Shown: piece after piece, positions 14,082 to 64,000 of the stretch
Position numbering within the stretch: the first letter of the stretch is position 1
How the letters are laid out: every line of letters begins with the position of its first letter
Assembly: GCF_021353235.1 (NCBI RefSeq)
Contig: NZ_JAJTWT010000010.1
Coordinates: forward strand, 124,001-188,000
DNA length: 64,000 nucleotides
From: Pelomonas caseinilytica
GTDB lineage: Bacteria > Pseudomonadota > Gammaproteobacteria > Burkholderiales > Burkholderiaceae_C
Direction: 5' to 3'
The notes under the pieces: model-generated
Told to the model about the DNA's origin: nothing
Seen by the model: only the letters and a program-made list of their open reading frames with translations
Database searches by the model: none
Position numbers and translations under genes: made by a program

Positions 14082-14098
14082 AACGCCAGGCGCTCGTC

Positions 14099-17717: not shown

Positions 17718-20700
17718 ATGCGAAAGCTGTTCGGGGACAAGAAGAACACGGGTGCCATTTCCAAGCCGGCGCAGGCGGCGGGAGTGCGCAAGCCGCGGCT
17801 CAAGACACTGGCCCAAGGACTGCGCCAGGCCCTGGCCGGCAACGATCTCCCGCAGGCCGCGCGGCTGCAGTTCGACTCCTTCGAGCCCCGCGTGCTGATG
17901 TCCGGCGACGGCGTGGCGCCCCAGGTGAGCGGCCGCATCGACGTGCCCGGCGAGGTCGACCGTTATGTCTTCACCCTGCCCAGCGACACCCAGCTGGTGT
18001 TCGACTCCCTGACCGCCGATGCCGACCTGAAGTGGTCGCTGCAAGGGCCGCAGGGCCAGGTGATCACGGCGCCGCGCGCGCTGGACGCCAGCGACGCCAA
18101 CGCCAGGAGCGGCGACGTCGCCCTCAGCCTCAAGGCCGGCACCTACACCCTGCAGGTGGACGGCATGGGCGACCACGTCGGCGACTACAACTTCCGCATC
18201 ATCGACCTGGGCCGGGCCCAGGCCATCACCCCGGGCCAGGTCGTCAAGGGCACGCTCACGCCCGGCAACCAGACCCAGGCCTACAGCTTCGGCGCCATCG
18301 CCGGCCAGACCTTCTACTTCGACGCCCTCTCCAACCCCGCGTCCACCGACTGGCGCCTGATCGGCCCCGACGGCAAGACGGTGGTGGGCCCGACCTCGGC
18401 CGGCACCGACCTCGAAAACCAGCTGCTCACCCAGACCGGCACCTACACCCTGCTGGTGGAAGGCCGCGTCGGCAACACCGCCGCCACCACCAACTACGCC
18501 TTCAACGTCCAGCCCGTGCAGGACGTGCTGGCCGACCTTCAGCTGGGCCAGGCCCTGGACGCGGGCCCGGGCTGGGTGCCCAGCCCCGAAGGCGGCGCCC
18601 TCGAGCTGGGCGGCCTGCGCTCGGTGCAGGCGCCGGCCTCGCCGGCCCTGGACCTCGGCCGCACCGTCACGATGGAGGCCTGGGTGACCGTCGACCGGTT
18701 CACCAACTCCTACATGCCGGTCGTCTACAAGGGCGGCAACGACAGCAGCTTCGGCAGCCACCGCACCTACGCCCTCTTCATCACCAGCGGCGGCGACCTG
18801 CTGCTCAGCACGGGCGACGGCGGCGAGCAAGCCCTCTACAGCTCGGGTGGGCGCATCAAGCTGGGCGAACGCACCCACGTGGCGGCGACCATCGACCGCG
18901 ACGCCGGCGTGATGAAGCTCTTCGTCAACGGCGCCGAGGTGGCCAGCGGCGCCGTGCGCACCGCCGGCAACGCCTTCTCCGCCGCCACGCAGCCGCTGCT
19001 CATCGGCCGCACCGACGAGCCCTACGGCGGCTTCAGCCCCTTCGCCGGCACCATCGACGACCTGCGCATCTGGAAGAGCGCCCGCAGCGGCGCCGACATC
19101 GCGGCCGACATGGGCGCCCAGATCACCACCGCGCGGCCGGACCTGGTGCTCAACTACCGCTTCGACGCCGCCAGCGGCAGCCTCGTGGCCGACAGCGGCC
19201 CGCTCGGACTGGCGGGCAGCGTCGTCAACCCCGTGGCCGCCGTCGCGGGTGCGGTCAGCGGACGCATCGCCACGCCGGGCCAGCGCGCCATCTACAGCCT
19301 CGACCTGACCGACACCCGGCGCATCGTCTTCGATTCGCTGCGCAGCAGCCCGATGAACTGGACCCTCACCGGCCCGGGCGGCGTGCTCGTCAATGCGCGC
19401 AATCTCGACAGCAGCGACTCGCGCGACCGCGACGGCACCGACGGCGTGCTCGCAGACCCGGCCGCCACCGGCCGCGTGGTCTACGACCTCGGCCCCGGCC
19501 ACTACACCCTCACCATCGACGCGCCGGGCGACACCACGGGCGAGTACGCCTTCCGGCTGCTCGACCTGGGCGCCACCGCCCTGCCGCTCACCCTCGATGC
19601 CACGACCACCCAGGTGCTGCCGGTGGGCAGCATGACCCAGGCCTGGTCCTTCGCCGTGGCGGCCGGCGACCGCCTGGCCTTCACCCACCTCGGCGCCACC
19701 AATGCCGACCTCCAATGGCGCCTCATCTCGCCCACCGGTGAGCAGGTGTGGAGCAGCTACTTCGGCACCGATCCCGGCGAGCGCACCTACACCCAGGCCG
19801 GCACCTACACCCTGCTGGTCGAGGGCCGCAACTATTCGATGACGGCCAACACCGTCAGCTTCAAGGTCGCCAAGACGGGCAACACCCTGGCCGAACGCGT
19901 CACGGGCTTCGACCAGGACTTCGCCGGCCCCGGCCTCGACCCGCTCTGGCAGGTGGGCGGCGTGCCCACCACGCTGACCTCGGCGGGCGCCCCCAGCTAC
20001 AGCTTCGGCACGCTGGACGGCGCGAGCGTCATCCGCCTGAACTCGGCCATTGCCGGCCAGTCCCGCGGTGCCGGCTGGACGACGGCCACCAACGCCGTCG
20101 GCCAGGGCTTCAACTACGAGGTGCGCTTCAACACGCTGGTGCAGTCGGGCGCCACCGGCTTCGACGAGCTCATCGGCCTGTCCCTGACCGACGTGGCCGA
20201 CCCCAGCCGCTGGGTCGCCACGGCCCTGCGCAGCAACACCACCGGCGGCGCCCGCTCGATGGGCGTCGACAACCGCGGCGTCGGCGGCGGCAACTACTAC
20301 CAGTCGCAGGCCTTCAACTTCAGCGACAACACCTGGTACCGGCTGCGCCTGTGGGCCGCGCCCGACAGCAGCATCAAGGCGACGCTGCTCAGCGATGCCG
20401 GCGCCGAGCTGATGACGCTGGACCTGGGCGTCACGACGGATGCCTTCGCCGGCGGCGCCCGCTTCGGCATCTACCAGTCCAACACCACGACGAGCGGCAC
20501 GGCCATCCACGACGTCGCCATCGACTGGGCCCGCCTGACCACCACGCCGGCGGCCCCGCAGGCCCTGACCCTCGGCCAGTTCGTCACCGGCACCCGCCCC
20601 GTGACGACGCAGCGTGACCTCTACACCTTCACGCTGGCCCAGCCCACGCTGGTGATGATGGACACGCGCGAGAACAGCGGCAACCTGCGCTGGACCCTGA

Positions 20701-23700
20701 CCGACGAGCGCGGCACCGTCTCCACGGGCAACTGGTCCGACTGGGGCGCCACGCCCCTGAAGGCCGGCACCTACACCCTCAAGATCGACGGCAACCTGAC
20801 GGGCGCCTACGGCTTCCGGCTGGTCGACCTCGGCGCCAGCCCCGCCCTGCCCATGGGGCAGGTGGTGTCGGGCACGCTGAACCCCGGCTACGGCGTGCAG
20901 TCCTGGCGGTTCGACGGCACGGCCGGCCAGCACCTGTACTTCCAGGGCCTGGCCGGCATCAATGCCGACTGGCGGCTCTTCGACCCCAACGGCCAGCAGG
21001 TGTTCTGGAATTACACCGGCAGCGACCAGGAACTCAACCTCGTCCAGTCCGGCCGCTACACGCTGACGCTCAACGGCTACAACAGCAACCCGGCGGCGCA
21101 GAACTTCGCCTTCCGCGTCGGCGACACGGGCGACCGCAGCCTCGACATCGACCTCGCCCAGGGCACCGACAGCAGCCCGGTCTGGGTGCCGGGCGCGCCG
21201 GCCCTGGGTGGCGGCGCGCTGGAGCTCGATGCGCGGCGCGAGATCGCCGTGCCCGACGGCGCCGCCACCGACCTGCGCAACGACGTCACCTTCGAAGCCT
21301 GGATCCACCCCGACCGCTTCGGCGCCACCTGGCAGCCCATCGCCGTCAAGGGCGATGCCGCCGGCCAGCGCAGTTATTCGCTCTGGCTCAACAGCAGCGG
21401 CTACCTGCGCCTGTCCACCTACGACGCCACCGGCGAGCAGGCGGTGGACAGCGCCGCCGGCTCCATCCAGGCCGGCGCGTGGAGCCACGTCGCGGCCGTC
21501 ATCGACAAGACCAGCCACCAGCTGCGCCTCTACATCAACGGCGTGCTGGCCGCGCAGAAGGACAACATCCGCACGGCGCCCGCCGTCGGCACGCCGGCGC
21601 CGCTGCGCATCGGCACCACCGCCGAGTACAACGCCAGCTTCGGCTCCTTCGACGGCGCCGTCGACGAGGTCCGGCTCTGGAGCACGGCCCGCACCGGCCA
21701 GCAGATCGCCGACAACTTCAACAAGGCGCTGCCCGGCGCCCAGCCGGGCCTGGCCCTGCGCCTGGGGCTGGACGAAGGCAGTGGCACGGGCGTGGCCGAC
21801 AGCGGCCCGCAGTCCCTGAGCCTGACAGTCGGCAAGCTCTTCGGCGGCATCCCGGGCGCCATCCAGGGCACGCTGGCCAACCCCGGCCAGATCGACCGTT
21901 ACCGCTTCACCGTCAGCCAGCCCATGACGGTGGTCGTCGACACCCTGCTGGGCGCCAGCGGCCTGAGCTGGACACTGTCCAACGCCTCGGGCACCGTCGA
22001 CAGCGCCGGCCTCAACGCCACCGACGCCAACGACGCCTTCCACCTCGTCCAGCTCCAGCCGGGCGAGTACACCCTGACGCTCAACGCCAGCAACGCCACG
22101 ACGGCGCCCTATGCCCTGCGGCTGCTGGACCTGGCCGGCGCCACGCCCGTGTCCATGGGCAGCGTCGTCAGCGGCACCCTCGCCCCCGCCACCCAGACGG
22201 TCGCCTACCGCTTCCAGGGCACGGCCGGCCTCAAGCTCTACTTCGACGAACTCTCCACCGGCGGGGGCGGCGGCGTGTACCGCCTCGTCGGGCCTGACGG
22301 CCAGTCCCTGTGGACCTCGGCGCTGGACACCGACGTCGACACCTTCGCCCTGCCGCTGACCGGCACCTACACCCTGCTCGTCGAGGGCCACCGCGACGCC
22401 AGGCAGAGCAATGCCTACAGCTTCCGCCTGCTGCAGGAGCCGGACACGACCACGCAGGTCACGCTCGGTACCTCGCTGGGCAACCAGCCCCAGCTCGCGC
22501 CGGGCCGCTTCGGCAACGCCCTGCTGGGCAACGGTGTGAACTCGGTCGAGGTGCCCGACGGCCCGGCCACCGACCTGGCCGGCGACATCACGGTCGAGGC
22601 CTGGATCAACCCGACGCGCAGCACGACGACCTGGATGCCCATCGTCGCCAAGGACGACGCCAACAACCAGCGCGCCTACACGCTCTGGCTGAACGCCGAC
22701 GGCTCGCTCTGGGGCGACACCCGCGACGCCAGCGGCCTGCAAAGCGCCCAGACCGTCGCCGGCCTGGTGCCGGACGGCAGCTGGAGCCACGTCGCCCTGG
22801 TCATCGACCGCAGCGCGGCCACGCCACGCATCCGCCTCTTCGTCAACGGCGTCGAGGCCGCCCTGCGCAGCGGCGGCGGCCTCAGGCCCGCTGCCGCCAT
22901 CGACACGGCCGGCAGCCTGCGCGTGGGCAGCGCCTGGTTCGACAACACCGACAAGCAGCGCTTCGACGGCCTCATCGACGAGGTGCGGGTCTGGTCCGTC
23001 GCCCGCACCGCGGCGCAGCTGCAGGCCGGCATGAACGCGCCGCTGGCCGGCAACGAATCCGGCCTGGCCGTCTACCTGCCGCTGGACACCCTCGGCGCCG
23101 ACGGCAGCACCGCCGCACTCGGCCTGGCCACCCAGGCCACGGTGAGGAACAGCTTCGCCGGCCTGGACGGCGTCATCGCCGGCACGCTGGCCCAGCCCGG
23201 CCAGACCGACACCTACCAGTTCACCCTGGGCCAGCGCACCCAGGTGTTGATGGACAGCCTCTACAACGCCTACGGCAAAGTGACCTGGCGCCTCACCGGC
23301 CCCGGCGGCTTCGACCTGACGCGCAACATGGCGGCGACGGACGCCAACGACGCCTTCCCGCTGCTGGACCTGCAGGCCGGCACCTACACCCTGCGCATCG
23401 ACGCCAGCGGCGAGAACACCTCGGCCTACGCCCTGCGCATGGTGGCGACCTCGGCCCTGCCGGTGATGACCCCCGGCACGCAGGTGACCGGCACTCTCAA
23501 CCCTGGCAGCCGCACCGCCGGCTGGCGCTTCCAGGGCACGGCGGGCAGCAGCTACTACTTCGACGCCGCCGCCTTCGGCATGACCGACGGCCGCGTGCGC
23601 CTGGTCTCGCCCTATGGCGCCGAAGTCTGGTACGCCACGCCCGGCAACGACGTCGACACCTTCACCCTGCCGGCCACGGGCGAATACCTGCTGCTCGTCG

Positions 23701-26700
23701 AGGGCCGCCGCGACGACACCGACCTGCCCGGCAACTACAGCTTCAACCTGCGCCCGGTCACCGACGCGCAGCAGCCCCTGGTGCTCGGCCAGGGCCAGCC
23801 CAAGGCGCCCGATTGGCAGGGCAGCGCCCTCGGTTTCGACGGCACGCAATGGCTGCAGGCAGGCGCCGACCCGGCCCTCAACCTGAGCCACAACGTCACG
23901 ATGGAGGCCTGGATCAACCCGGTCCAGCCCGACACCAACTGGACCTCGCTGCTCTACAAGGGCGACGGCAACGGCAGCCAGCGCACCTTCAGCCTCTGGC
24001 TCAACCGCAACGGCTCGCTGCACGTCTCTACCGGCGACGGCAGCAACCGCACCCTCGGCACCGCCGCCGGCCTCATCCAGTGGGGCCAATGGCAGCACGT
24101 GGCCGCCGTCATCGACCGCGACAGCCACCAACTGCGCCTGCTGGTCAACGGCGTCGAGGTGGCCAAGACCACGCTCTCGGGCAACGACGCCACCGCCTCC
24201 AGCTCGCCCCTGTTCATCGGCCAGGCGCGCGCCGAGCAGAACGGCGACTTCTCGAACTACCGGGGCGCCCTGCGCGACGTGCGCGTGTGGAACCAGGCGC
24301 GCAGCAACGCCGACATCGCCGCCGGCACCCAGGCCGTGCCGACCGGCCAGGAGGCCGGCCTGGTGCTCAGCTACCTGCTGAACCAGCCCGGCGGAACCGC
24401 CGTGACCAACACCGTCGCCGGCGCACCGGCCGGCAGCCTCGTCGGCCTGTACGACGGCCTGCCCGACACCGTGCGCGGCCACATCGCCTCGCCGGGGCAG
24501 AAGTCCGTCTACACCCTGCAGGTCGACAGCCTCAAGCGCGTCGTCTTCGACAGCCTCAGCGACAGCAACTTCACCTGGACCCTGGCCGGCCCCGACGGCA
24601 CCCTGGTCAATGCCCGCCAGTTCAACGCCAGCGACTCCGTCGACCGCAGCGGCAGCGACGGCCACCTGTCCAACCCCGCCGACAACAACCGCGTCGTCTA
24701 CGAACTGCGCCCCGGCACCTACACCCTCAGCGTCGACGCGCCCGGCGACGCCACCGGCGACTTCGCCTTCCGCCTGCTCGACCTGGCCGCCGCGCCGCCG
24801 CTGGCCGTGGGCAGCGCCGTCAACACCACCCTGGCCGCGGGCAATTCGACCCAGGCCTACCGCTTCGACGTGACGGCGGGCGACCGCCTCTTCTTCGACT
24901 TCCTGTCCGCCAGCAACACGGACATGCGCTGGCGGCTGATCTCGCCCACCGGCGAGCAGCTCTGGACCAGCAACTTCAATGGCGACGTCGCCACCCGCAC
25001 CTACCTGCAGGGCGGCAGCTACACCCTGCTGCTCGAGGGCCGGCGCAACAGCCCCAATCCCAACAACCTCGCCTTCCAGGTCGTCCGCCAGGGCAACACC
25101 CTGGCCGAACGCGTCAGCGGTTTCGACGACAGCTTCGACGGCCCGGCCCTGCCCGGTGCCGCCGGCTCCGGCTGGACGCAATCGGGCGGCAACCTCAGCG
25201 TCAGTGCCGACGCCGTCGGCGGCGCCTCGGTCGTGCGCCTGCACACCCAGCAGACCAGCTACCAGACCGGCAATGCGCTGACCACCACCGCCACCGCGGC
25301 CGGCCAGGGCCTGAGCTACGAAGTCCGCTTCAACACCCTCGTGCAGGGCGTGGCCGGCGTCAGCACCGACGAGTTCATCGGCATCAACGTGCAGAGCGCG
25401 GCCGACCCCAACCGCAACGCCTGGGTCAACCTCTTCAGCGACGCCAGCAACAACCGCCAGTGGCGCAGCGGAACGACCAACGTCGGCGGCGCGGGCTACA
25501 GCAGCACGGCATTCGCCTTCGCCGACAACACCTGGTATCGCCTGCGCATCGAGGCGCCGGCCGACGGCAACCTGCGCGCCGTCGTGCTGGCCGACGACGG
25601 CACCACCGTCCTCGCCTCGCGGGACCTGGGCGTGACGACCGACGCCTTCGCCGACGGCTTCCGCTTCGCCGTCTACCAGTACGACACCCTCGGCGGCGCC
25701 CCGCATCCCTCGGAGGTGGCGGTCGACTGGGCCCGCGTCACGACCACGCCGCCGGCCAACCAGCCCATCAGCCTGGGCCAGCTCGTCAGCGGCGACCACA
25801 AGTCCGCCACCCAGCGCGACACCTACAGCTTCACCGTCACCCAGCCCACCCAGGTCGTCATGGACCCGCGGGCCGACAACGGCAGCCTGCAATGGACGCT
25901 CAGCAGCGTCCAGGGGCAGTTCGGCAGCCTCAACTTCCAGCAGCGCAGCTCCGACTACACGGCCAACCCCGTCATGACCCTGCCGCCGGGCAGCTACACG
26001 CTGACCGTCTCCGGCAGCGGCACGGGGCTGTACGCCTTCCGGCTGCTGGACCTGGCCTCGGCCACGGCCATCACGCCGGGCACCGCCGTGACCGGCGCCC
26101 TCAACCCGGGCAACGAGACCGACCTCTACAAGTTCGACGCCACGGCCGGCCAGCGCTTCTACTTCGACATGCAGCAGGTCGGCACCGCCGACAGCAGCTG
26201 GCGCCTCATCGCCCCCAACGGCCAGCAGCGCTGGTTCAGCAACCTCAGCGACGTCGACACCCAGGTGCTGGACCAGACCGGCACCTGGACGCTGGTCGTC
26301 GAAGGCCGGCGCTACCAGGCGAGCGGCAGCAATGCCTACCAGTTCAACGTCCGGCGCCTGACCGACATCGCCGGCAGCCTGACGCTGGGCCAGCGCGTCG
26401 AGGCCACCCTCACGCAGCCCGGCCAGGAGGCGAACTACCAGTTCGCGCTGACCCAGCGCAGCCGCCTGCTGTTCGACACCCTCAACAACGCCGGCTTCCG
26501 CTGGACGCTGACCGGCCCGCAGGGCGTGGTCGTCAACGCCCGCACCCTGACCAGCTCCGACGCCCAGGACTTCTACTTCTACAACCCGCTGCTGGACCTG
26601 CCGGCCGGCAACTACACCCTCAAAATCGACGGCGTCGACGACGCCACCGGCACCTTCGCCTTCCGGCTGCTGGACCTGGCCTCCGCCCCGCCCATCACCA

Positions 26701-29700
26701 CGGGCACGCCCTTCACCACCACGCTGCCCAGCGGCACCGAGACCCAGCTCTACAGCTTCACCGCCAACGCGGGCGACAAGTTCTTCTTCGACGTCCAGCA
26801 GTTCACCAGCAGCAACGGCGCCTGGCGCCTCTTCGGCCCGGCGGGCAACCAGGTCGCCTACGTCGGCAACTTCGCCGACCTCGACGTGCAGACCCTGGCC
26901 GACGCCGGCAGCTACGTGCTGGCCTTCGAAGGCCGCTACAACGCCGGCGCCAGCAATGCCGTGCGCATGCTGGTGCAGCCCCTGCCCGACGTGGCGCCCA
27001 CGCGCATCACCGGCCTGGAGTACCAGCCCTCGCCCGACCTGATGGCGCAGGGCCTGCAAGTCACCGCCGCGGGCGGCGCCATCGAGTCCGGCAGCACCGT
27101 GACCGTGGCCTGGACCGACCACAACGGCGGCGAGCGCCCGGCCAACCTCAGCTGGCACGACCGCATCGTCGTCAGCCGCGCCGACACGGGCGAAGTGCTG
27201 GCCACCCGCGTGCTGCCCTACGACGTGGGCAGCCTCGGCCCGCTGGCCGCGGGCGCCGACGTCGCCCGCTCCGTACAGCTCAACCTGCCCGAGGGCATGC
27301 GCGGCGCCGGCCTGCTCCGCGTGGCCGTCACCGTCGACGTCGACAACGTGCTCGACGAGCGCAACACCACCGGCACCGGCGAGAGCAACAACACCACCGT
27401 CACCCAGGTCACGGCCACGCTGCCGGCCTACGCCGACCTGCTGCCCGAGCAACTGAGCGTGCAGCCGGCCGGCGGCTGGCTGCCGGGCAGCAACGTCACC
27501 GTCGGCTGGACCACCCGCAACGCCGGCACCCGCGACACCAGCGGCGCCTGGCAGGAGACCCTGGTGGTGCGCAACCTCATCACCAACCAGGTCGTCTACA
27601 CCACCACCGTCGACCACGACGGCAGCGTGCTCGCCGCCGGCAACGGCACGGCCGCCCGCAGCGTGGCCATCGCCTGGCCGGCCGGCGCGAGCAGCGAGGG
27701 CCGTTTCTCCTTCACCGTCACGGTGGACGCCGGCGGCGTCGTCCCCGAAGTCAACCCGGCGGGCACCGGCGAGACCAACAACACCGCCAGCGTCACCCGC
27801 GTCTCGGCGCCCGACCTCGTTCCCGCCAGCCTCGCACTGGACCCCGGCCCCGTGCAGAGCGGCGCCACGCTCACGCTGCGCTGGACGCTGTCCAACGCCG
27901 GCAATGCACCGGTCACGACCGGCCTGGCCGAGCGCATCACCGTCTACAACGCCACCACCCACCAGACGGTGGTGACCAAGTCCGTCATCTACGACCCCGT
28001 GGCCGACGGCCCCATCGAGGCCGGCGAACAACGCCAGCGCCAGGCCAGCTTCAAGCTGCCCGACGGCGTCGCTGGCGCGGGCGACCTCGTCATCACCGTC
28101 ACGGCCGACGCCAACAACAGCGTCGTCGAAGACAACGCCGGCGCCACCGCCGAGTCGAACAACGCCGCCACGCTGGCGGCCACGTCCGTCGTCGCGGCCT
28201 ACCCCAACCTCAAGGTCAGCGCCCCGACGGCGCCGGCCAGCGCACGCGGCGGCGACACCGTCACCGTCAGCTGGACGGTCACCAATATCGGCAGCGCCGC
28301 CGCCACCGGCAGCTGGACCGACCACCTGGAGCTCTCGGGCAACACCCTCTACGGCGACGGCGACAACCGCGCCACCGCCGACGTCGTCCACCAGGGCCCG
28401 CTGGCGGCCGGCGCCTCCTACACCGCCACGGCCCAGGTCACGCTGCCGCTGCAATACGACGGCACGCTGAACTGGATCGTCCGCACCGACGCCGGCAACG
28501 CCGGCCCCGAACCCGACACCCGCGCCGACAACACCTCCTCCGCGACCCCCATCGACGTGACGGCGCCCTACGCCGACTTCAACGTCGAACTCGTCACCGC
28601 GCCGCCTTCGGCCGTGGCCGGCACCCAGGTCGAGATCGCCTGGCGCGTGCGCAACCTCGGCGACACGGCCGCCACCGGCAGCTGGAAGGACCGCGTCGTG
28701 CTGTCGCAGGACGGCGTGTTCGGCAACGGCGACGACATCGTGCTGGATACGGTGCTGCACAACGGCCCGCTGGCCGCGCAGGACGCCTACGGCGAGCGCC
28801 GCACCGTGACCCTGCCGCAGGACCTGCCGGGCACCTGGCGCGTGCTCGTGAAGAGCGACCTCGACGGCAGCGTCTACGAAGGCGCGCGCCTGGGCAACAA
28901 CCTCGGCACCGCCGCGGCGCCCCTGGTGGTGGCACCGGCGCCCTCCGCGGACCTCGCCGTCAGCGACATCGCCGCCCCGGCCGAAGCCCTCGCGGGCAGC
29001 CAGGTCACCGTGACCTGGACGGTCGGCAACAGCGGCGAGGCCGACGCCACCGGTCCGTGGACCGACTACGTCTACTTCAGTCTCGACGGCCAGCTGGCCG
29101 GCGCCACGCTGCTCGGTACCCGCACGCGCACCGAGGCGCTCACCGTCGGCGGCCACTACGACGCCTCGCTGAAGGTGACGCTGCCGGACGGCGCGGACAC
29201 CAGCACCGCGCGCATCCTCGTCGTCACCGACGCCGCCCACCAGGTCTACGAGTCGCAGCGCGAGGCCAACAACCAGGGCGCCTCGGCGGGCGCCGTCGCC
29301 CTGCGCCACGTCAACCTGCTGGCCACCAGCATCGACGCGCCCGACACCGCCACCTCCGGCGGCAGCCTGCACGTCGTGTTCAACGTCTCCCAGGCCGGCA
29401 GCGCCGTGCTCAGCGGCAGCTGGACCGACCGCCTCTACCTCTCGGCCACGCCGACGCTCGGCAGCGGCGCCCGCCTGCTCGACACCCAGGCCGTGAGCCG
29501 CACCGTCGCGGCCGGCGGCAGCTATGCCACCACCTTCGACGTCACCGTGCCGGTGGACGTGCAGGGGCCCTGGTACCTCATCGCCGTCACCGACGCGGGC
29601 GGCGGCATCAAGGAGGTCGGCGGCGAGGCCGACAACGCCGTCTCGCGCGCCATCACCGTCAACCTGGCGCCCTACGCCGACCTCGCGGTCAGCAACGTCA

Positions 29701-50700: not shown

Positions 50701-53700
50701 GCTTCGACTACGACGCCATGGGCAACCTGCTGCGCCGCACCGATGCCCTCGGCCGCGTGACCCAGTACGGCTACGACGAGCTCAACCGCCGCATCGAGAC
50801 CATCGACGCGGACGGCCACTCGGCCACCCTGGCCTACGACGAAGTCGGCCGCCTGACCGTCTCGACCGACGTGCTCGGCAACGCCACGCACTACGCCTAC
50901 GACAGGCTCGGCCGCCTGGTGTCCACCACCCGGCCCGACCCCGACGGCGCCGGCCCGCTGGCCGCACCGGTCACGCGCTACAGCTACGACGCCGTCGGCA
51001 ACCTGCTGACCGTGACCGATCCAGCCGGCGGCGTGGCCACCTTCGGCTACGACGAACTCAACCGCCGCGTCACCACCAAGGATGCGCTCAACCAGACGAG
51101 CAGCGTCGGCTACGACGCCGTGGGCAACATCGTGCGCATCACCGATGCCGCCGGCCAGACGACGCTGCGGGAGTTCGATGCGCTCGACCGCCTGGTCAGC
51201 CAGACCGGCCCCGACCCGGACGGCGCCGCCGGCCCGCTCGCCGCGCCGGTGACGCAGTACCGCTACGACGCCAATGGCCGCGAGATCGAGCGCATCGACG
51301 CCAACGGCCACGGCACGAAGACGACCTACGACAAGCTCGGCCGCACGCTCACCGTGACCGATGCGCTCGACGGCGTGTCCAGCTTCGCCTACGACGCCGT
51401 CGGCAACCTCGTCACGGCCACCGACGCCCTCGGCCGCGCCACGCACTACGCCTACGACGGCATGAACCGCCGCGTCGGCGTGCTGCAGCCCGACCCGGAC
51501 GGCAACGGCCCCGATGCCGCGCCGGCCACCGCCATGGTGTACGACGCCGTCGGCAACCTGGTCGCCGTCAGCGACCCGCTCGGCCACGTGACCGAGTACG
51601 GCTACGACGCCCTCAACCGCAACGTCAGCATGAAGGACGCCCTGGGCCAGACCAGCCGGCGCGTCTACGACGCCGCGGGCAACCTGGTGGCCAGCGTCGA
51701 CGCGGCCGGCCAGGCGACGACCTACGCCTACGACAACCTCTACCGCCTCACCCGCGTGACCCAGCCCGACCCGGACGGCGCGGCCGGCCCGCAGGCGGCT
51801 CCCGTCACCCGCTACGGCTACGACATCAAGGGCAACCGCACGAGCGTCACCGACGCGCTCGGTCGCACGACGCTGACCGAGTACGACGCGCTCGACCGCG
51901 TGGTCAAGGTGACCGACGCTCTCAATGGCGTCTCGACCCTCGAGCGCGACGCCTCCGGCAACATCGTCAAGGCCACGGATGCGCTCAACCGCGTCACCCG
52001 CTACGGCTACGACAACCTCAACCGCCTCACCAGCGTCACGGACCCGATGGGCTTCGTGACCCGGACCGCCTACGACGCGGTGGGCAACGTGGTGTCCAAG
52101 ACCGACGCGCTGGGCAAGGAGACCCGCTACGAGCAGGATGCGCTCAACCGCACCGTCAAGGTGACCGACGCCCTCGGCGGCGTCACGCGCATGGCCTACG
52201 ACGCCGTGGGCAACCTGGTGCAGACGACCGACGCCCTCGGCCACGTGCGCACCGATGCCTACGACGGCCTGAACCGCCGCGTGCAGCACACCGAGCCCGA
52301 CCCCGACGGCAGCGGCCCGCAGGCGGCCGCCGTGACGCGCTGGAGCTACGACCTCGACGGCAACCTCGTCGCCACGACCGACCCGCTCGGCAAGGTGACG
52401 ACCCGGACCTACGACGCGCTGAACCGACTGCTGACCAGCACCGACCCGCTCGGCGGCAAGACGCAGTACGGCTACGACGCCCTCGGCAACCTGAAGTTCC
52501 TCGTCGATGCCGACGGCTACCGCACCGACTACGCCTACGACACGCTGTCGCGCCGCGTCGCCGAGATGGACCCCTACGGCGCGGTGACGACCTTCGGCTT
52601 CGACGCCGTCGGCAACCTGCTGAGCCAGAAGGACCGCCTCGGCCGCACCACCACCTACACCTACGACGCGCTGAACCGCCAGACGCAGGAGCAGTGGCAG
52701 GACGCCCAGGGCCAGACGACGCGCACCACCACGCGTGGCTACGACGCCGCCGGCCAGCTGCTGACGGTCACCGACCCCGACGCCAGCTACGCCTACACCT
52801 ACGACGACGATGGCCGCCTGGTCAGCCAGGACAACGCCGGCAGCCCCGGCCAGCCGCACGAGGTGACGCTGTACGCCTACGACAAGGCGGGCCGCCAGAC
52901 CAGCGCCACCCAGCAGGTCAACGGCCAGGCCGTGCTCACCACCACGCGCAGCTACGACGCCCTCGGCCGCCTCACCGACGTGGCCCAGGCCGGCAGCGCC
53001 GCCGGCGCGGGCGCGCACGTGGCCATGGGCTACGACGCCGTAGGCCAGATACTGAGCATCGACCGCTACACCGCAGGCGGCGCCACCGCGGCCGTGACGA
53101 CCCGCTACACCTGGGACGACGCCGGCCGGGTGCTGGAGATCAAGCACGCCAACGCCGGCGGCACGGTCAACGACATCGTCCACCAGTGGGACGTGGCCAG
53201 CCGCCTGGTGGCCACCACCAGCAGTGACGGCAGCACGGCCTACAGCTACGACGCCCGCGGCCAGCTGACTGGCGTGGACTTCAGCTTCCAGGCCGACGAG
53301 TCCTTCGGCTACGACGCCAACGGCAACCCGACCGGCCCGGGCACGACGACGGGCAAGGCCAACCGCGTGCTGAGCGATGCGCGCTACAGCTACACCTACG
53401 ACGCGGAAGGCAACCTGCTCACGCGCACCGAGACGGCCTCCGGCACCGTCACCCGCTACACCTGGGACCAGCGCAACCGCCTCGTCGCCACGACGATCAC
53501 CAATGCGCAGGGCCAGCTGACCGACAGCCAGAGCTTCAAGTACGACGCCTTCGGCCGCCGCATCGAGCAGACCGAGGATGCCGACGGCGCCGGCGCGGGG
53601 GCGGCCGTCACGCAGCACCTGCTGAACGACGGCGCCCAGATCGCCCTCGCGCTGGACGGCGCGGGCGCGGTGCAGCAATCCTTCATGTACGGCGACCGCG

Positions 53701-56700
53701 TCGACCAGGTGCTGATGGAGCGCCACGGCGCGAGCCAGACCTGGTCGCTGGCCGACCACCTGGGCACGGTGCGCGACGTCGTCGACGCCAGCGGCAACCT
53801 CGTCGACCACCTGCGCTACAACGCCTTCGGCCTCGTCACGGGCCAGACCCAGGCCGCCGCAGCGCCGCGCTTCAGCTACACCGGCCGCGAGTACAACGCC
53901 GCCCTCGGCCTGTACGACCTGCGCGCGCGCTGGTACGACCCCGCCTCGGGCCGCTTCATCAGCGAGGACCCGAGCGGCTTTGCCGGCGGCGACGCCAACC
54001 TCTACCGCTATGCCGCGAACGACCCCGTCACGCGCATGGACCCGTGGGGCCTGTCCAGCGAATTCTGGGACGGCGCCAAGGGCGTGGGTGGCGCCGTGGT
54101 CGACACCGTCGGACAGGGGCTGGTGGGCGGCGGCGTGGCCGTGGGCCACTTCCTGACCTCCTTCGTCACCGGCATCGCCGACCTGGCCTGGGGCGCGGCC
54201 GACGTCGCCTACTTCGGCCTCAAGGTGGTGGGCGGCGAGATCAACGCGGGCCTGTACGCCGCCACCGGCAACGAGACCTTCCGGCAGAACGCCGAGCTGC
54301 TCTACAACAACTCCATCGGCCCCATCGTCGACAAGTTCAACGACCCCTGCGGCGACTTCCTGCATTCGCTGGCCAGCATCCCCAGCATGATCTCGCCGGA
54401 CAAGGGCCTGACCACGCGTCTGCACGAATGGGAGGACGGCGTCTTCGACAAGTGGTCGCCGGGCTACCGCGACGCCGCCAAGGCCTCGCGCGACGTGACC
54501 GACATCGCCAGCATCTTCCTGGACCCGCTGGCCGCCGAAGGCATCGTCAGCAAGGCCAAGGGCGTGGGCTCGCTGGGATCGAGCATCGAGAAGCTCGGCT
54601 CCGCCAGCCGCGCGGAGATGGCCGAGCTGCGCCTGCAGCGCGAGGCGTCCAAGTTCGGCCGCGCCGCGACCGAGGCCGAGCTGGCCGCCGTGCGGGCGGC
54701 CGAGCAGTCGGGCCACTCGATGAGCGAGATCGACAAGCTCAGCCACGGCCTGGTGCGCCAGACCCAGGCCGACGCGGCCCTGGGCCGCGCCGAGGCCACG
54801 GCCAACAACGCGATCCGTGCGGCCGACGAGGCGGTGCAGTCGGCCAGGCAGGCCGCCACGACGGTCTCGGCCGACCAGGCCCGTGCCCGCGCCCTCATCA
54901 ACAATCTCCAGGAAACTCGCAAGGCCGCCGAGATGGAGCGGGAGGCCGCCGCGGCGCGCCGCGCAGCCGGCATCGTCGAGAAGGTCGAGAAGGGCAAGGA
55001 TGACAAGACCTGGATCGACACGACCGTCGCCGCGACCAAGAAGTTCCTGAAGCAGTTCGGCTCGGTCAGCGCCGCCTCCGCCAGCGAGAAGGCCGCCATC
55101 GCGGCCGAGATCGAGCGCGCGGCCCGCGACGGCATGTCCATCGCCAACGAGGTGGGCATGGTGCAGGGCAAGCTGCGCGTGGAGGTGCGCTCGGCCGACA
55201 TCCTCACGGCCGCGGGCAACCGCTTCGGTTTCCGCATGGGCCTCGAGGCCAAGCCCGAGGCGCTGAAGGCCAAGTCCTATTTCGGCCTCGTGCCGATGAA
55301 GGACAAGATCGCCAAGGAAGGCGGCTACATCAAGTCCTTCCTCGGCACCGAGGGCGGTTCGCTGGGCGAGAAGTTCCAGAACTGGATGCGCGGCAACTTC
55401 TACCGCGGCGACCAGGACATCGCCCGCGCCACGCTGACCTACGTCACGGCGGACAACCGCGTCGTCACCTACACGCTGAACAACAGCGAGATCCTGGCGA
55501 TGGGCGACCGCATGAACGAGACCCTGGCCCTGCAAGGCCACACGCCCTCCTTCCTGCACGGCGCGCACACGACCATGGATCCCGTCCATGGCGGCTACGT
55601 CGACGCGGCGCTCATCACCAAGATCGACGCGCCGGGATCGGTCACGCAGTTCCGCATGGACTACGGCACCGGCGAGCTGCTGCAGCGCGAGCGCAACGCC
55701 TCGCAGTACTACCACCTCCTCGACAGCACCAACGGCGCCAGCCTCTGGGACAACACCTGGACCCTCGAGAAGGGCGTCTGGAACCCGCGCAACGAGGCGA
55801 TGAAGTGGAGCAATGTCTCCTACGACGGCCGCTCGGCGCTGACCTACCGCGACGCCGTGCAGAACCCGCTGACGGCGACGCGCCTGGCCGAGATCGACCA
55901 GGTGATGGCGAACGCGGACCGCATGCAGAGCGACCGCTTCTTCAGGGCGCTCGACCGGCAGACCGCCGGCGCGGGCTCGCCCATGCTGGATCGCACGGGT
56001 GCCCATTTCTACGACCCCGGCTGGGTGCAGCAGCGCTTCCCCGAGCTGGCCGCCGCCCGCCCCGATCTCGTCACGCCCGCCATGCCGGCCGTGCCGCGCA
56101 CCGAGGCCCAGATGGACGCCCTCTTCGAGGAATTCCGCCGCGCCGGCGTCGTCACCGACGAGATGATCCGCAAGGGCGTGCCGTTCGTTGGCCTGCAGGG
56201 TTCCACGACCCAGCAGTTCGCCGCGCCCGACATGGGCGCCGTGCTCAAGCTGGCCGACGTGGCCCAGTCGCTGTGGCGACTGGCCGGTGCCGGCGCGGGC
56301 ATGCAGCTGCGCGTGTCGTTCGCCGACCTGCCCACCGGAGAACTGGGCGAGGCCTATGTCACCCAGCTCGACGCCAACGGCCTGCCGTCCGAGGGGCGCA
56401 TCGTGCTGGACATCGACGCCGACGGCCACGGCTGGTTCGTCGACGCGACGCCGCTGGACGCCAGCGAGTTCAACGGCAGCGCGACCTCCCCGGCCGCCGG
56501 CCGCTACGACCTCGTCACGGTGCTGGCCCACGAGATCGGCCACACCCTGGGCTTCCTGCGCGGCTTCTCCGGCTTCGACCGCAGCCTCGTCGCCCAGCCC
56601 GACGGCTCCATCCGCCTGCGCACCAACACCTTCAGCGCCGCCCTCAGCGCCGACGGCGAGCACCTCGCCGGCAACGCCACCGCGGGCGACCTGATGAGCG

Positions 56701-59700
56701 CGGGCCTGGGCCTGGGCCAGCGCCGCCTGCCCTCGGTGCTGGACGCGCAGATCGTCGCCGCCGCCCGCAGCGGCGCCACGGCCCTGGGTTCGGTGCAGCA
56801 GGTGAGCCTCGGTGGCTCGCGCGACCTCGCCAACTCGGGCCTGCTGCCCAACGGCGACTTCGGCAACGCGGTCCCCGGCTCGGCCGGCTTCGGCTGGAGC
56901 GTCAGCGGCGCGGCCTCGGTGCAGAACGGCCAGGCCGTGCTCGCCGAGACTTCGACCATCGCCTCGCGCTTCACGCAGACCGTCTCGGCCGTGCCTGCCG
57001 GCGCCACCGTGCTGACCTTCACCGTCGTGCAGACCCACTTCGACCTGCCGGCCGGCGGCCCGCAGGACGCCTTCGAGGTGGCGCTGATCGACCCGGTCAC
57101 GCACGCCTCGCTGCAGGGCGGCATCGGCCTGTCCAACACCGACGCGGCCCTCAACCTGCAGGCCGACGGCTCGGTCTACCGCGCCGCCGGCGTGCGCTTC
57201 AGCACCCTGGATGGCACCCTGCTGGCCGCGCCGCCGGCCAACGGCCCCTTCCAGGTCAGCATCGCCCTGGGCAATGCCGACCTGTCGCACGGCGTGTCGG
57301 TCTATTTCGACCTGCTGGGCTTCGGCGCCCAGGGCAGCCGCGTCGTCGTCGACAACGTGCGCTTCGACGACAAGATGCCGGCGAATGCCGCGCCGGTGGC
57401 CCAGGCCGACGCCGTCGTCACCGCCCAGGACACGCCGCTGACCTTCGACCCCCGCGCCAACGACAGCGACGCCAACGGCGACGCCCTCGTCATCGACATC
57501 ACCGGCCAGCCGGCCCACGGCACGGTGACGCTGCTGCCCGACGGCCGCGTCACCTACACGCCGGCCGCCGGCTTCAGCGGCACCGACGTGTTCGGCTACC
57601 GCGTGGGCGACGGCCTGGCCTGGTCCGAGCCCACGACGGTCAGCATCACCGTCACGCCGGCCGGCGGCCCGGCCAACACGGCGCCGGTGGCCAACCCCGA
57701 CAGCGTCACGACGGGCGCCGGCCAGCCGGTGCAATTCGACGTGCGCGCCAACGACACCGACGCCGAAGGCGACCCGCTGCAGGTGACGGTGCTGACGGCG
57801 CCCCGGCACGGCAGCGTGGCCCTGCAGCCGGACGGCACGCTGCGCTACACGCCGGCAGCCGGCTACGCCGGCAGCGACAGCTTCACCTACCAGGTCAACG
57901 ACGGCCGGGCCAGCTCCCAGCCGGCCCTCGTCAGCATCACGGTGACACCCGCGGCCAACCACGCTCCGCAGGCGGCGGACGACACCGCCACGACGCTGCA
58001 GGGACAGCCGGTCGCCATCGACGTGCTGGCCAACGACAGCGACGAAGACGGCAACGCGCTGACGGCCACCGTCGCCACCGGCCCGGCCCACGGGACGGTG
58101 ACGGTGGGGGCGGACGGCCGCCTGGTCTACACACCCGAGGCGGGCTTTGCCGGCAGCGACAGCTTCACCTACGTCGCCGGCGACGGCCAGGCCGCCTCGG
58201 CACCCGCGACGGTGCGCATCACCGTGACGCCCACCACCCCGGCCCCGGCGCCCGCGCCGGTGGCCGTGGACGATACCCTCACGCTGGCCGAGGACGGCAG
58301 CCTGCGTTTCGACGTGCGGGCCAACGACCAGGCCGCCCCCGGCCGCAGCCTGAGCGTGGAGGTGCTGACGCCGCCGGCCCACGGCGTGCTGGTGGCCCTG
58401 CCCGACGGCAGCTTCAGCTACACCCCGGCGGCCGACTTCTTCGGCAGCGACGGCTTCAGCTACCGCGTCAACGACGGCAGCGCCAACAGCGGCATCGCCC
58501 ACGTGGCCATCACCGTCACGCCGGTGGACGATGCCCCGGTCGTGCAGCCGGTGGCCGACGTGAGCGTGCTCGAAGGCGGCCAGGTCGTCGTCGACCTGCA
58601 GGCCAGCGACATCGACTCCACCGGCCCGCTGACCTACACCCTGCGCGACGCCCCGGCCGGCGCCACCATCGACGCCAACGGCCGCATCCGCTGGCGCGCC
58701 GCCGATGGCCCGGCCGACGTGGCCTTCACCGCCGAGGTGTCGGACGCCCAGGGCGCGAAGACCCAGGCCCGCTTCGTCGTGCACGTCGGCAACGTCGTGC
58801 CGACCGTGAGCTTCGACGGGGCCGCCACCGTGCAGGCCGGCCAGGCCTACACCCTGGGCTTCACCCTGGCCGATCCCGGCCAGGACACGGTCTCCCAACT
58901 GGTGGTGGACTGGGGCGACGGCCAGCTCGAGGCCATCAGCCCGACAGCCACCCAGGCCAGCCACGTCTACCGCACGGCCCAGGCCGGCGTGCAGATCCGC
59001 CTGCTCGTCACCGACGAGGACGGCAGTTATGCCTACGCCGCGCCGCTGCTGACGGTGCTGGCCCAGCCGGCGCCCACCCCGACGCCGGCCCCGGCGCCTC
59101 AACCCCAGCCCGCCACCGGCGTGCCGGGCGGCGTGGCAGGCGGCGGCACGAGCCGGGCACAGCCGGGCAGCCTCGACGGGCTGCGCGTCGGCCTGCCGCA
59201 GGGCGGCACGGCGGCGGCGGACTTCGGCGTGACCAGCTTCGGCCAGTCGGCCCACTGGAACGTGCAGCCGCTGGCGCGGGCCTCGCAGGAGAGCCTGTCG
59301 CCGGCGCTGCAGAACCTGCCGCAGCCGCTGACGCCGGAGGCCATCGCCCAGCTGATCGAGAGCCAGCCGACCTCGGCCGGCCAGCGCCCGGCGCTTTACG
59401 TGAGCGAGCTCTTCGCCACGGCCGGCGGCATCCACCTGCGCTTCAACAAGGCGCTGGACCTGCGCGCCCTGGCGCACGGCGCCCCGCTGGCGGCCGGCCT
59501 CGCCAACCGCGACCTCGTCGTGCTGGTGAACGGCCGCCCCCTGGCCGGCCACCTCGTCGTCGACCTCGACGGCGCGGGCTTCCTCTTCGTGCCCGAGGGC
59601 GGCGTGCTGCCGGACGGCGAGTTCGAGATCCTGATCCGCACCGACGGTGGCAGCTTCGTCAGCGTGGACGGCGAGATCCTCGACGGCAACGACGACGGCC

Positions 59701-60014: not shown

Positions 60015-60061
60015 CGCCGCTCCACCCCATTCCGACGACAAGAAATCCCGAGGACCCCACC

Positions 60062-61402
60062 ATGTTCATTCCCGCCCTGCCCGCCGCCCGCCACCCGTCG
60101 CGCGCCTGCGCCGCCCTGCTGGCCCTGGCCAGCGCCGCGGCTGGCGCAGACACGCTCAGCGAGATCTACCTGCAGGCGCGCGCCAACGACCCCATCTTCG
60201 GCGCCGCCACGGCCACGGCCGCGGCGGGCCGCGAGAAGGAGTTCCAGGCACGCGCCGGGCTGCTGCCCACGGTGACCGCCAGCGCCACCATCCAGCGCGA
60301 CCTGGAGCACTCCAACTACATCGACGGCAAGCGCCGCATCTACAGCAACCGGCCGTGGAACGTGACGCTCAACCAGCCCCTCTTCCGCCTGGCCAACATG
60401 CGCGGCTACGAGCAGGGCGTGCTGCAGTCGCAGCTGGCCGACCAGCAACTGCGCCTGGCCGAGCAGGACCTGCTGCTGCGCGTGGCCAAGGCCTATTTCG
60501 ACGTGCTGCAGGCCCAGGACGCCCTGGCCGCCATGACGGCCCAGCGCGACGCCTTCGCCCAGCAGCTGGCCCAGTCCAAGCGCAGCTTCGACGTCGGCCT
60601 GTCCAGCATCACCGACCTGAACGAGGCCCAGGCCCGCAACGACCTCGGCGTGGCCCAGGAGATCGGGGCGCGCAACGACCTGGAGGTCAAGCGCCGCACG
60701 CTCGAGAAGCTCATCGGCCGCGAGCTGCCGCCTCTCGCCACCGTCGCCCCCGAGGCCGGCGTCAACGTGCTGACCGCGGAACAGGCCGAACGCCTGGTGG
60801 AGCGCGCCCCGAGCGACTCGTTGCAGGTGGCCGCGGGCGAGACCGCCGAGCAGGTCGCCAAGCTGGAAATCGACCGCCAGCACGCCTCGCGCGCGCCCAC
60901 CATCGACCTCGTGCTCAACGCCAACGAGCGCAATTCGACGGCCTACGTCTCGCCCGGCAACTCGCGCAACTACACGGCGGGGCTGGAGATCCAGATCCCG
61001 GTCTTCCAGGGCGGCGCCGTCGACTCGCGCACCCGCGAAGCCGTGGCCAACCTCGAGCGCACCCGCCAGGAGCTGCTCAACGCCCGGGCGCAGGCCCGGC
61101 TCGACGCCCGCCAGGCCTACCTCGGCGTGCAGTCGGGCTCGGCCCTGTACACCTCGCTGCGCCAGGCTCTGGTCTCGGGCGAGACCCAGGTCAAGTCGAC
61201 GACTCGGGGGCTGGAGGTCGGCACGCGCACGCGGGTGGACGTGCTCAATGCCGAGCAGCAGCTCTTCGCCACTCGCAAGGACCTGGCCGCCGCCCGCTAC
61301 CAGACGCTGATGGCCGGCCTGCAGCTCAAGGCCGCCGCCGGCGCGCTGAGTGAAGAGGACTTCCGCGGCCTGGACGCCCTCATGGTGAACCCCAAGCCCT
61401 GA
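60062..61402 (+). CDS. TolC-family outer-membrane efflux/secretion channel
   Basis: This 446-residue protein forms the outer-membrane exit duct of tripartite export systems. GAGGA at 60050-60054 gives a good start at 60062, and a signal peptide ends near AAAGA. The mature part begins DTLSEIYLQARANDPIFGAA, as in TolC/CyaE type channels. It contains two OEP repeats with the helix motifs QAQDALAAMTAQRD, DVGLSSITDLNEAQAR, EVGTRTRVDVLNAEQQLF and RYQTLMAGLQLKAAAG; the VGxxxxTDxxxAQ pattern is diagnostic. It begins 47 bases after the giant gene, with no terminator or promoter evident between them, so both are probably co-transcribed. That placement suggests it is dedicated to exporting the giant protein. 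Confidence 0.95.
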   Translation: MFIPALPAARHPSRACAALLALASAAAGADTLSEIYLQARANDPIFGAATATAAAGREKEFQARAGLLPTVTASATIQRDLEHSNYIDGKRRIYSNRPWNVTLNQPLFRLANMRGYEQGVLQSQLADQQLRLAEQDLLLRVAKAYFDVLQAQDALAAMTAQRDAFAQQLAQSKRSFDVGLSSITDLNEAQARNDLGVAQEIGARNDLEVKRRTLEKLIGRELPPLATVAPEAGVNVLTAEQAERLVERAPSDSLQVAAGETAEQVAKLEIDRQHASRAPTIDLVLNANERNSTAYVSPGNSRNYTAGLEIQIPVFQGGAVDSRTREAVANLERTRQELLNARAQARLDARQAYLGVQSGSALYTSLRQALVSGETQVKSTTRGLEVGTRTRVDVLNAEQQLFATRKDLAAARYQTLMAGLQLKAAAGALSEEDFRGLDALMVNPKP

Positions 61403-63419: not shown

Positions 63420-63429
63420 GGGCCCGCCC

Positions 63430-64000
63430 GTGACCGCCCGCGCCTTGCTGGCCCCGTACTGGTACCGCGTCGCGGCCCTGCGCCCGCGGCTGCGCAGCCA
63501 TGTGCGCCTGCATCGCCACGAGTACCGCGGCGAGGTCTGGCATGTGTTCGAGGACCGCGCCAGCGGACGCCACCACCGCTTCAACGCCCAGGCCTGGCGC
63601 GTCATCGGCCTCTTCGACGGCCGGCGCAGCCTGGAGGAGATCTGGGCCCTGCTCTCGCACGAGGTGACGGACGAGACGCCCACGCAGGCCGACATCGTCA
63701 AGCTGCTGGGCCAGCTGCACGCGGCCGACCTGCTGCTGGCCGACGTGACGCCCGACACCGCCGAGCTGTTCGAGCGGCGCGGCAAGCACGAGCGCCGCCA
63801 GCGCCTGGGCCGCTTCGCCAACCCGATGTCGATGCGCTTCCCCCTCATCGACCCCGACCGCCTGCTGGCTCGCCTGGCCGCGGCGCTGCGCCCCGCCGGT
63901 GGCCGCTGGATGCTGCTGGCCTGGCTGGCCGTCGTGCTGCCGGCCGTGCTGATGCTGCCCTCGCATTGGCGCGAGCTGACGCACAACTTCAGCGACCAGT
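63430..64000 (+). CDS. Membrane protein with PqqD-like N-terminus, probably M50/HlyD-type export component, 3'-truncated by window
   Basis: A GTG start at 63430 lies 10 bases after the fusion-protein stop, and 190 codons are visible before the window ends. Residues about 15-105 resemble a PqqD-like winged-helix domain. It opens HVRLHRHEYRGEVWHVFEDRASGRHHRFN, continues AWRVIGLFDGRRSLEEIW, and closes with ADIVKLLGQLHAADLLLAD. A basic stretch (RRGKHERRQRLGRF) and the first membrane span (WMLLAWLAVVLPAVLML) follow. In related clusters I know, such proteins continue into a site-2-protease-like (M50) membrane domain and sometimes a second HlyD part. That continuation is not visible here and is inference. 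PqqD domains bind peptides in RiPP systems, so a substrate-recognition role in export is plausible. Confidence 0.7.
   Translation, partial: MTARALLAPYWYRVAALRPRLRSHVRLHRHEYRGEVWHVFEDRASGRHHRFNAQAWRVIGLFDGRRSLEEIWALLSHEVTDETPTQADIVKLLGQLHAADLLLADVTPDTAELFERRGKHERRQRLGRFANPMSMRFPLIDPDRLLARLAAALRPAGGRWMLLAWLAVVLPAVLMLPSHWRELTHNFSDQ

What the first reader, a model, noticed from the sequence alone, without database searches (positions are those of the whole stretch)
17718..64000. Candidate dedicated export system for a giant LEPR-XLL/RHS protein, with no ABC ATPase in view
Four consecutive genes form a logical unit: the giant substrate without a Sec signal, a TolC channel, a membrane fusion protein with cytoplasmic GAF-like domains, and a PqqD-like membrane protein. 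Type I secretion would need an ABC transporter beside the adaptor, but here the gene next to the adaptor starts with a PqqD-like domain instead. PqqD recognition, GAF gating and a possible M50 core could make a distinct secretion machine for very large proteins.
Basis: partly seen in the sequence, partly recalled or inferred. Interest (0 to 1): 0.8.

Follow-up and report, generated by a model that had tools for sequence, protein, structure and literature searches.

The report
SecA-motor exporter for giant LEPR proteins
A bacterial protein of about 14,100 amino acids sits in an operon with an outer-membrane channel, adaptor proteins, a leader-binding membrane protease and a cut-down copy of the SecA export motor, and across many bacteria this machine occurs together with giant proteins that carry one particular N-terminal address label.

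Summary
In detail: a ~14.1-kaa LEPR-XLL/RHS protein, TolC, GAF-HlyD and the start of a PqqD-M50 gene lie in a row. Beyond the window the M50 gene is complete (HELGH, then HlyD). The next gene is not an ABC ATPase but a short SecA (NBD1-PPXD-NBD2, no SecA_SW), then a small HlyD. The genome has a second such operon and a separate full-length SecA.

The machinery is already in print: Kamneva et al. 2015 (PMC4452313) described this locus, proposed SecA as ATPase and M50 as pore, and called its role completely unknown. The cargo is what my searches did not find in print. In 150 genomes of the order, 15 of 15 with a strong LEPR-XLL hit carry the short SecA. Of 48 genomes picked by the M50 gene alone, 41 carry strong LEPR-XLL hits.

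There is also a leader code. 'FExLEPRxLLSAD' goes with class A M50 plus short SecA; 'ALEPRxMFDGA' goes with a second M50 class whose examined operons have no ATPase. A prediction from this code held in 15 of 15 genomes tested; one gene is intermediate.

Export, its route and leader cleavage are inferred, not shown.

The parts
17718..60014 (+). Giant protein, 14,098 aa from ATG (14,118 from TTG at 17658): laminin-G/LamG, CARDB, He_PIG, Big_9 and cadherin-like repeats and a long RHS stretch; no RTX nonapeptides by a simple pattern count; probable cargo
17865..17909 (+). LEPR-XLL leader core LQFDSFEPRVLMSGD, after a basic leader of 49 residues from ATG 17718; class A type (S at position 7 after the first L/F of the core)
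   Evidence: NF012209 match; position
53928..54050 (+). End of the RHS stretch (RHS core-like sequence ending DPWG)
   Evidence: the label RHS core is recalled
56529..56564 (+). HEIGHTLGFLRG, a HExxHxxGxxH/xxG-like zinc-protease motif inside the giant
   Evidence: motif label recalled, no family match at E 1e-5
60062..61402 (+). TolC-family outer-membrane channel, 446 aa
   Evidence: PF02321
61539..63419 (+). GAF-HlyD adaptor, 626 aa: two GAF-like folds (residues about 29-132 and 189-305), a membrane helix (about 359-377), a HlyD/MexA-like periplasmic part and a hydrophobic C-terminal helix
   Evidence: Pfam; AlphaFold model mean pLDDT 90.3; Foldseek matches to MacA/MexA/AcrA
63430..64000 (+). 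First 190 aa of the PqqD-M50-HlyD membrane protein (716 aa; continues to L009:6580). Next, outside the window: short SecA L009:6588-8567 and small HlyD L009:8616-9533
   Evidence: AlphaFold model of an orthologue, mean pLDDT 85.6

Best explanation
The operon encodes a dedicated envelope-spanning exporter for giant LEPR-XLL proteins. The basic N-terminal leader with the core FExLEPRxLLSAD is the address label. It is recognised at the inner membrane by the PqqD-like domain of the PqqD-M50-HlyD protein. The short SecA, a bare NBD1-PPXD-NBD2 motor without the wing-scaffold part, drives the unfolded chain by ATP hydrolysis through or along the M50 membrane core, which may also clip the leader. The HlyD parts of the M50 protein, the GAF-HlyD adaptor and the small HlyD connect to TolC, so that the chain reaches the cell surface in one step. 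Shown here: the gene set and its recurrence, the intact motor and HExxH motifs, the link between cargo and machine, and the leader code. Inferred: recognition by PqqD, the route across the inner membrane, cleavage, the use of TolC, and surface location.
For: Operon and no ABC; a simple ABC-signature pattern found an ABC-like ORF in 3 of 102 machine loci. Recurrence: all 20 neighbourhoods fetched around a short SecA plus the two of this genome (22 of 22) hold GAF-HlyD, PqqD-M50-HlyD and short SecA together, 21 of 22 in the same order; HExxH and the NPL..D motif kept in 22 of 22 M50s and the Walker A, DEAD-type and GRGTD motifs in 22 of 22 short SecAs, all ending at the same place. Cargo: order sample of 150, LEPR E<=1e-4 in 15 genomes, all 15 among the 18 with short SecA (Fisher 5e-18, not corrected for kinship). 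Phylum sample of 398: short SecA 35, class A M50 39, both 34; LEPR E<=1e-3 in 41, of which 32 have class A M50, 8 only class B and 1 neither. Genomes picked by M50 alone: LEPR E<=1e-4 in 41 of 48 held. Proximity: 18 of 43 LEPR genes of class A genomes lie within 10 kb of a class A M50 gene, 0.6 expected by random placement. Both LEPR giants of this genome abut one of its two operons. Three giants next to the machine on plasmids that are not annotated as LEPR all begin with the core motif, and one is annotated LEPR-XLL. Leader code. No Sec-like hydrophobic stretch: 12-residue hydropathy reaches 2.0 in 1 of 106 class A leaders, two of which are probably antisense artefacts.
Against: No experiment. 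Class B machines have M50, two HlyD proteins and, in the one class B operon whose channel gene I family-searched, an outer-membrane efflux (OEP) protein, but no short SecA: 11 of 11 class B genomes examined have only full-length SecA, so the short SecA is not needed by every LEPR machine. Two of 39 class A genomes (G377, G515) have no short SecA at all and two others have very divergent ones (G199 207 bits, G207 83 bits). Seven of 48 M50-picked genomes lack a strong LEPR hit, and 7 of 39 class A genomes have none at E 1e-3. G401 has a LEPR-like hit but no M50 (86% complete). TolC was found in only 5 of 22 loci, so the outer-membrane channel is often encoded elsewhere. The short SecA lacks the part that in normal SecA pushes the chain into SecY.
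Confidence: 0.6

Rival explanations
1. SecYEG-coupled route: the short SecA (in class B the normal SecA) hands LEPR proteins to the ordinary SecYEG channel; PqqD-M50 binds and cuts the leader at the membrane, and the HlyD/TolC parts take over in the periplasm.
For: The short SecA keeps NBD1, PPXD and NBD2, 450 bits to solved SecA. Class B machines have no SecA of their own, which would fit use of the housekeeping SecA/SecY. No other inner-membrane channel is encoded.
Against: Leaders lack a hydrophobic signal core. The short SecA lacks SecA_SW, the part with the wing and finger that meets SecY (role of that part from established knowledge). No SecY2 was seen in the neighbourhoods, but SecY was not searched for genome-wide.
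Confidence: 0.22
2. Processing or anchoring module: the giants leave by an ordinary ABC type I exporter encoded elsewhere, and the M50/SecA module only trims, releases or holds them.
For: HlyD and TolC are type I parts; M50 enzymes are proteases; TolC is absent from 17 of 22 loci.
Against: ABC-like ORFs in 3 of 102 loci by a simple pattern. The giant has no RTX nonapeptides by pattern and no hemolysin-type repeat in Pfam. A trimming module does not explain a SecA motor. ABC exporters were not sought genome-wide.
Confidence: 0.12
3. Mere co-inheritance: giants and machine both occur in large, gene-rich genomes and are not functionally linked.
For: Both are patchy and found on plasmids; related genomes inflate the Fisher values.
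Against: 18 of 43 neighbours against 0.6 expected; the leader class follows the M50 class; many genomes of similar size have neither.
Confidence: 0.03

Closest known systems
Secondary SecA_DEAD domain locus (Kamneva, Poudel and Ward 2015, PMC4452313)
   Same: SecA_DEAD protein without the SecA_SW domain, next to Peptidase_M50+HlyD, GAF+HlyD and HlyD proteins, sometimes OEP; no ABC transporter. The paper already proposes the SecA as ATPase and the M50 protein as pore.
   Different: The paper names no cargo and calls the biological role completely unknown; LEPR, giant and PqqD do not occur in its main text. Added here: LEPR-XLL giants as cargo, the PqqD domain, the leader code, a second class without short SecA, DUF3467 as an extra part, and plasmid copies.
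Type I secretion (HlyB/HlyD/TolC)
   Same: Adaptor and TolC-family channel; large repeat-rich cargo; presumed one-step export.
   Different: No ABC transporter; label at the N-terminus instead of the C-terminus; SecA-type motor and M50 membrane core.
Accessory SecA2 systems
   Same: A second SecA beside the housekeeping one; PMC4452313 places it near actinobacterial SecA2.
   Different: Lacks the wing-scaffold domain; no SecY2 in the loci; adaptor and TolC partners.
PqqD/RRE and M50 proteases of ribosomal peptide pathways (NCBIfam daptide NF041824)
   Same: PqqD-like N-terminal domain followed by an M50 core; 152 bits over residues 19-406 (cut-off 300).
   Different: Fused to a HlyD domain and tied to giant proteins, not to small peptides.

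Membership tests
Secondary SecA_DEAD locus (PMC4452313) | SecA_DEAD protein without SecA_SW | tested here: met
   Pfam: SecA_DEAD, SecA_PP_bind, P-loop_SecA and no SecA_SW at E<=1e-3; match to B. subtilis SecA ends near residue 603
Secondary SecA_DEAD locus (PMC4452313) | Neighbours: M50+HlyD, GAF+HlyD, HlyD | tested here: met
   22 of 22 loci for the first two, small HlyD in 16 of 22
Secondary SecA_DEAD locus (PMC4452313) | Same clade of SecA as in the paper | not tested
   The paper's alignment was not available; in my tree the 39 short SecAs are split from 12 full-length SecAs with support 1.0, no SecA2 included
Type I secretion system | ABC transporter with adaptor | tested here: not met
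   none downstream; ABC-like ORF in 3 of 102 machine loci by a simple pattern
Type I secretion system | Adaptor and TolC-family channel | tested here: met
Type I secretion system | RTX repeats in the cargo | tested here: not met
   0 nonapeptides by pattern; no hemolysin-type repeat in Pfam at E 1e-5
LEPR-XLL family (NF012209) | N-terminal match above the cut-off of 17 bits | tested here: met
   18.2 bits, 24.1 bits
Accessory SecA2/SecY2 system | Full SecA2 with wing-scaffold domain | tested here: not met
Accessory SecA2/SecY2 system | SecY2 in the genome | not tested
   not searched genome-wide
Active M50 (site-2) protease | HExxH and third-ligand Asp motif | tested here: met
   22 of 22; Pfam PF02163 slightly under its cut-off (26.7 against 27.2); proteolysis itself not testable here
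Secretion system | Cargo found outside the cell, dependent on the genes | not testable with these tools
   needs a mutant

The most novel reading that the evidence does not exclude
A separate type of bacterial secretion system: a SecA-family motor without SecY-contacting parts, coupled to an S2P-like membrane core with a RiPP-type leader-binding domain and to a HlyD/TolC conduit, exporting the largest known bacterial proteins by an N-terminal LEPR leader. It comes in two matched leader/M50 classes, one of which works without a motor of its own.
Probability: 0.4. Interest if true: 0.92.

Novelty: new variant of a known kind. Interest (0 to 1): 0.78.

Why it matters
How bacteria export proteins of 5,000 to 19,000 residues without a Sec signal is open, and a locus published in 2015 had no assigned role. 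The link made here assigns a cargo family to that locus and turns both questions into simple tests. If right, SecA-type motors work outside the SecYEG pathway, and a leader code lets the cargo of each machine be read from sequence. It would also give names to genes that public records now call 'PqqD family protein', 'DEAD/DEAH box helicase', 'translocase' or 'prepilin peptidase'.

Tried and rejected
Ordinary type I secretion was rejected because no ABC ATPase follows. The idea that any LEPR-XLL hit marks this machine was rejected: weak hits in genomes without short SecA proved to be the other motif class or short and antisense frames. The idea that position 7 alone (S or D) sorts the classes was weakened: G457 has D there, but an acidic residue at -2 as in class A, and lies 11.5 kb from a class A M50. 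DUF4347 as a literature handle led nowhere. A VIA-align search could not be run. Foldseek gave HlyD/MexA-type adaptors in the 50 rows shown for both models, so it did not test the M50 or GAF parts; sequence profile search gave PqqD 3g2b at E 0.0012 and an archaeal S2P only at E 0.78. One artefact of the survey: one search scored only two candidates per genome, so its class B counts are lower bounds; searches scored all candidates. Short SecA was 73 of 80 loci and 74 of 80 under a looser per-domain rule; two of the seven missing loci end right after M50.

Full report
1. What is there. The window is contig C2:124001-188000 of a 5.98-Mb, 40-contig genome. Its organism was not told; the closest named M50 relatives are Rhodoferax (58%) and Roseateles (54%), so Burkholderiales is likely (inference). 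One operon on the + strand holds the giant gene 17718-60014, TolC 60062-61402, GAF-HlyD 61539-63419 and PqqD-M50-HlyD from 63430. Past the window it continues with the end of the M50 gene, a short SecA and a small HlyD (L009 position + 59000 = window position). Gaps are 47, 136, 10, 7 and 48 nt. Pfam and NCBIfam give PqqD, Peptidase_M50 and HlyD for the M50 protein; SecA_DEAD, SecA_PP_bind and P-loop_SecA without SecA_SW for the ATPase; and HlyD plus GAF for the adaptor. The ATPase aligns to solved SecA over residues 87-649 at 450 bits and stops near B. subtilis residue 603, so the wing, finger and tail are missing. This genome also has a full-length SecA (C34, frame 967 aa) and a second operon on C5 with its own 12-kaa LEPR giant.

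2. Recurrence. A search of 150 genomes of the order with the short SecA separates two groups: full-length SecA (match ends near residue 548) and short SecA (match runs to about 657), the latter in 18 genomes (G065, with three matches, was not resolved). All 20 neighbourhoods fetched, plus the two of this genome, hold GAF-HlyD, M50 and short SecA together; 21 of 22 have the same order, and L060 has GAF-HlyD on the far side of SecA. An ORF of at least 1,392 aa abuts the operon in 9 of the 22, several of which are cut by contig ends. Short SecA was found in 73 of these 80 and GAF-HlyD in 77 of 80.

3. Cargo. LEPR-XLL (NF012209) was sought in the same 150 genomes: E<=1e-4 in 15, all of them short-SecA genomes; 0 of 132 others. 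G010, G052 and G114 have short SecA without a hit at that level (G010 has one at 5.6e-4). Weaker hits in genomes without short SecA were the second motif class or very short or antisense frames; one weak hit, G039, was not examined. In 398 genomes of the phylum: short SecA 35, class A M50 39, both 34; LEPR E<=1e-3 in 41 genomes, 32 of them with class A M50, 8 with class B only, 1 (G401) with none; among 309 genomes without any M50 hit, 1 has LEPR. Fisher values are 1e-42 (short SecA with class A M50) and 3e-32 (class A M50 with LEPR), not corrected for kinship. Picked the other way, by M50 only, 41 of 48 genomes have LEPR E<=1e-4; none in five, weak in G172 and G183. 18 of 43 LEPR genes in class A genomes lie within 10 kb of a class A M50, 0.6 expected. 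Plasmids of Pseudosulfitobacter, Methylosinus, Pontibrevibacter and Mesorhizobium carry a giant gene directly upstream of the machine. Three of these giants are annotated as Ig or LamG proteins, yet each starts with the LEPR core; the fourth is annotated LEPR-XLL. Two further plasmid hits examined did not show a giant in the part shown (H5 is at the record's edge; H10 has no gene listed upstream).

4. Leader. 106 class A leaders (two probably antisense artefacts) share a basic stretch (median net charge +7), a median of 45.5 residues from the chosen Met to the core, and the core [FL]ExLEPR[LIV]LLS[AG]D, with E at -2 in 101 and S at position 7 in 96. The set was found with NF012209, so core conservation is partly by selection. 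There is no Sec-like hydrophobic stretch in 105 of 106 by a simple hydropathy scan; no signal-peptide predictor was available.

5. Leader code. M50 profile scores fall into two groups: class A at 500 bits or more and class B at 255-361 bits. Class B operons read LEPR giant, channel-like gene, small HlyD, HlyD, M50, without SecA (15 loci, L270-L284, of which L270 and L271 overlap); in G093 the channel gene is an OEP protein. All seven LEPR frames seen in these class B loci have LE[PQA]Rx[ML][FL]D[GA]A. From this I predicted the M50 class of genomes by motif alone. One search agreed in 15 of 15: five genomes with only the class B motif have only class B M50; two with both motifs have both classes, the class B M50 gene lying 8-12 kb from the class B LEPR hit; and eight with artefact hits have none. 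Three other genomes in that call, which have short SecA, have class A. Classifying all 55 phylum hits: 11 of 11 hits in class-B-only genomes are class B; in class A genomes 39 are class A and 4 are class B by position 7; the G401 hit fits neither. All four genomes of the latter also have a class B M50. In three of them it lies near the class B gene. In the fourth, G457, the LEPR gene is 11.5 kb from a class A M50 and has an intermediate motif (FDPLEPRVLLDGT). Eleven of 11 class B genomes checked have only full-length SecA. Of the five class A genomes without a strong short SecA, G265 has one cut by a contig end, G199 and G207 have divergent ones next to M50, and G377 and G515 have none. So the M50 protein is the constant core, the short SecA belongs to class A, and the leader follows the M50 class. 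This is what one expects if the PqqD-M50 protein reads the leader.

6. Folds. The M50 orthologue L094 is predicted (mean pLDDT 85.6, pTM 0.67) with an N-terminal PqqD-like domain, a bundle of membrane helices, and a HlyD part with a coiled hairpin; Foldseek matches the HlyD part to MexA/MacA/AcrA, and PqqD 3g2b matches by profile at E 0.0012. The window's GAF-HlyD is predicted (90.3) with two GAF-like domains before the membrane helix, and its HlyD part matches MacA/MexA. Which side of the membrane each part faces is inferred.

7. Prior work. PMC4452313 (I read the main text from the abstract to the start of the Conclusions, parts 1-4 of 7, and searched the rest for six terms; [quoted passage not shown] That the cargo link and leader code are not in print rests on full-text searches and 108 of an open-access library without preprints; only listings were seen for the other papers.

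8. Verdict. The finding is real and functionally coherent. The machinery is known but unexplained; the cargo assignment and the leader code are, as far as I could search, new. Step by step: operon and recurrence shown; cargo link strong statistically; leader recognition by PqqD-M50 supported indirectly; SecA as motor, M50 as channel or protease, and TolC exit inferred.

Noticed in passing
L270-L284 (e.g. L270:2356-19999, L271:2406-4625): A second LEPR machine: giant with ALEPRxMFDGA motif, channel-like gene, small HlyD, HlyD and class B M50, with no short SecA and no ABC ATPase in the operon; its energy source is unknown.
   Followed up: partly
L042:7241-7540, L044, L053, L054, L060 and 20 of the 80 loci L092-L171; plasmids: A small DUF3467 protein between the giant and the adaptor genes in 25 of 102 class A loci; a possible extra part, absent from the window operon's gaps.
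   Followed up: partly
L287:12666-14690 (G207) and G199:C86:4306-5700: Very divergent SecA-like proteins of about 670 aa in the short-SecA position; the first gives no Pfam match at E 1e-5.
   Followed up: no
G257:C115:112865 (-): A LEPR-XLL open frame of 19,427 codons, the longest seen in these surveys.
   Followed up: no
L010:6349-7089: A small protein ending VPEPDGAALAAVAIVSAWLASRRRRQA, PEP-CTERM-like (label recalled), between the second giant and its TolC.
   Followed up: no
window 59811-59861: Near its C-terminus the giant has a short hydrophobic stretch followed by an arginine cluster (GGLGGAAVLAFGHWRRR), like a surface-anchor tail; not shared by the second giant.
   Followed up: no
window 1-15600: Upstream lie carbohydrate genes: GH31, alginate lyase with LamG, DUF418 and two GH2 enzymes.
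   Followed up: partly
plasmids NZ_AP022333.1, NZ_CP049813.1, NZ_CP085155.1, NZ_CP088148.1: The machine with its giant gene travels on plasmids; the short SecA is annotated as prepilin peptidase, DEAD/DEAH box helicase or translocase.
   Followed up: partly
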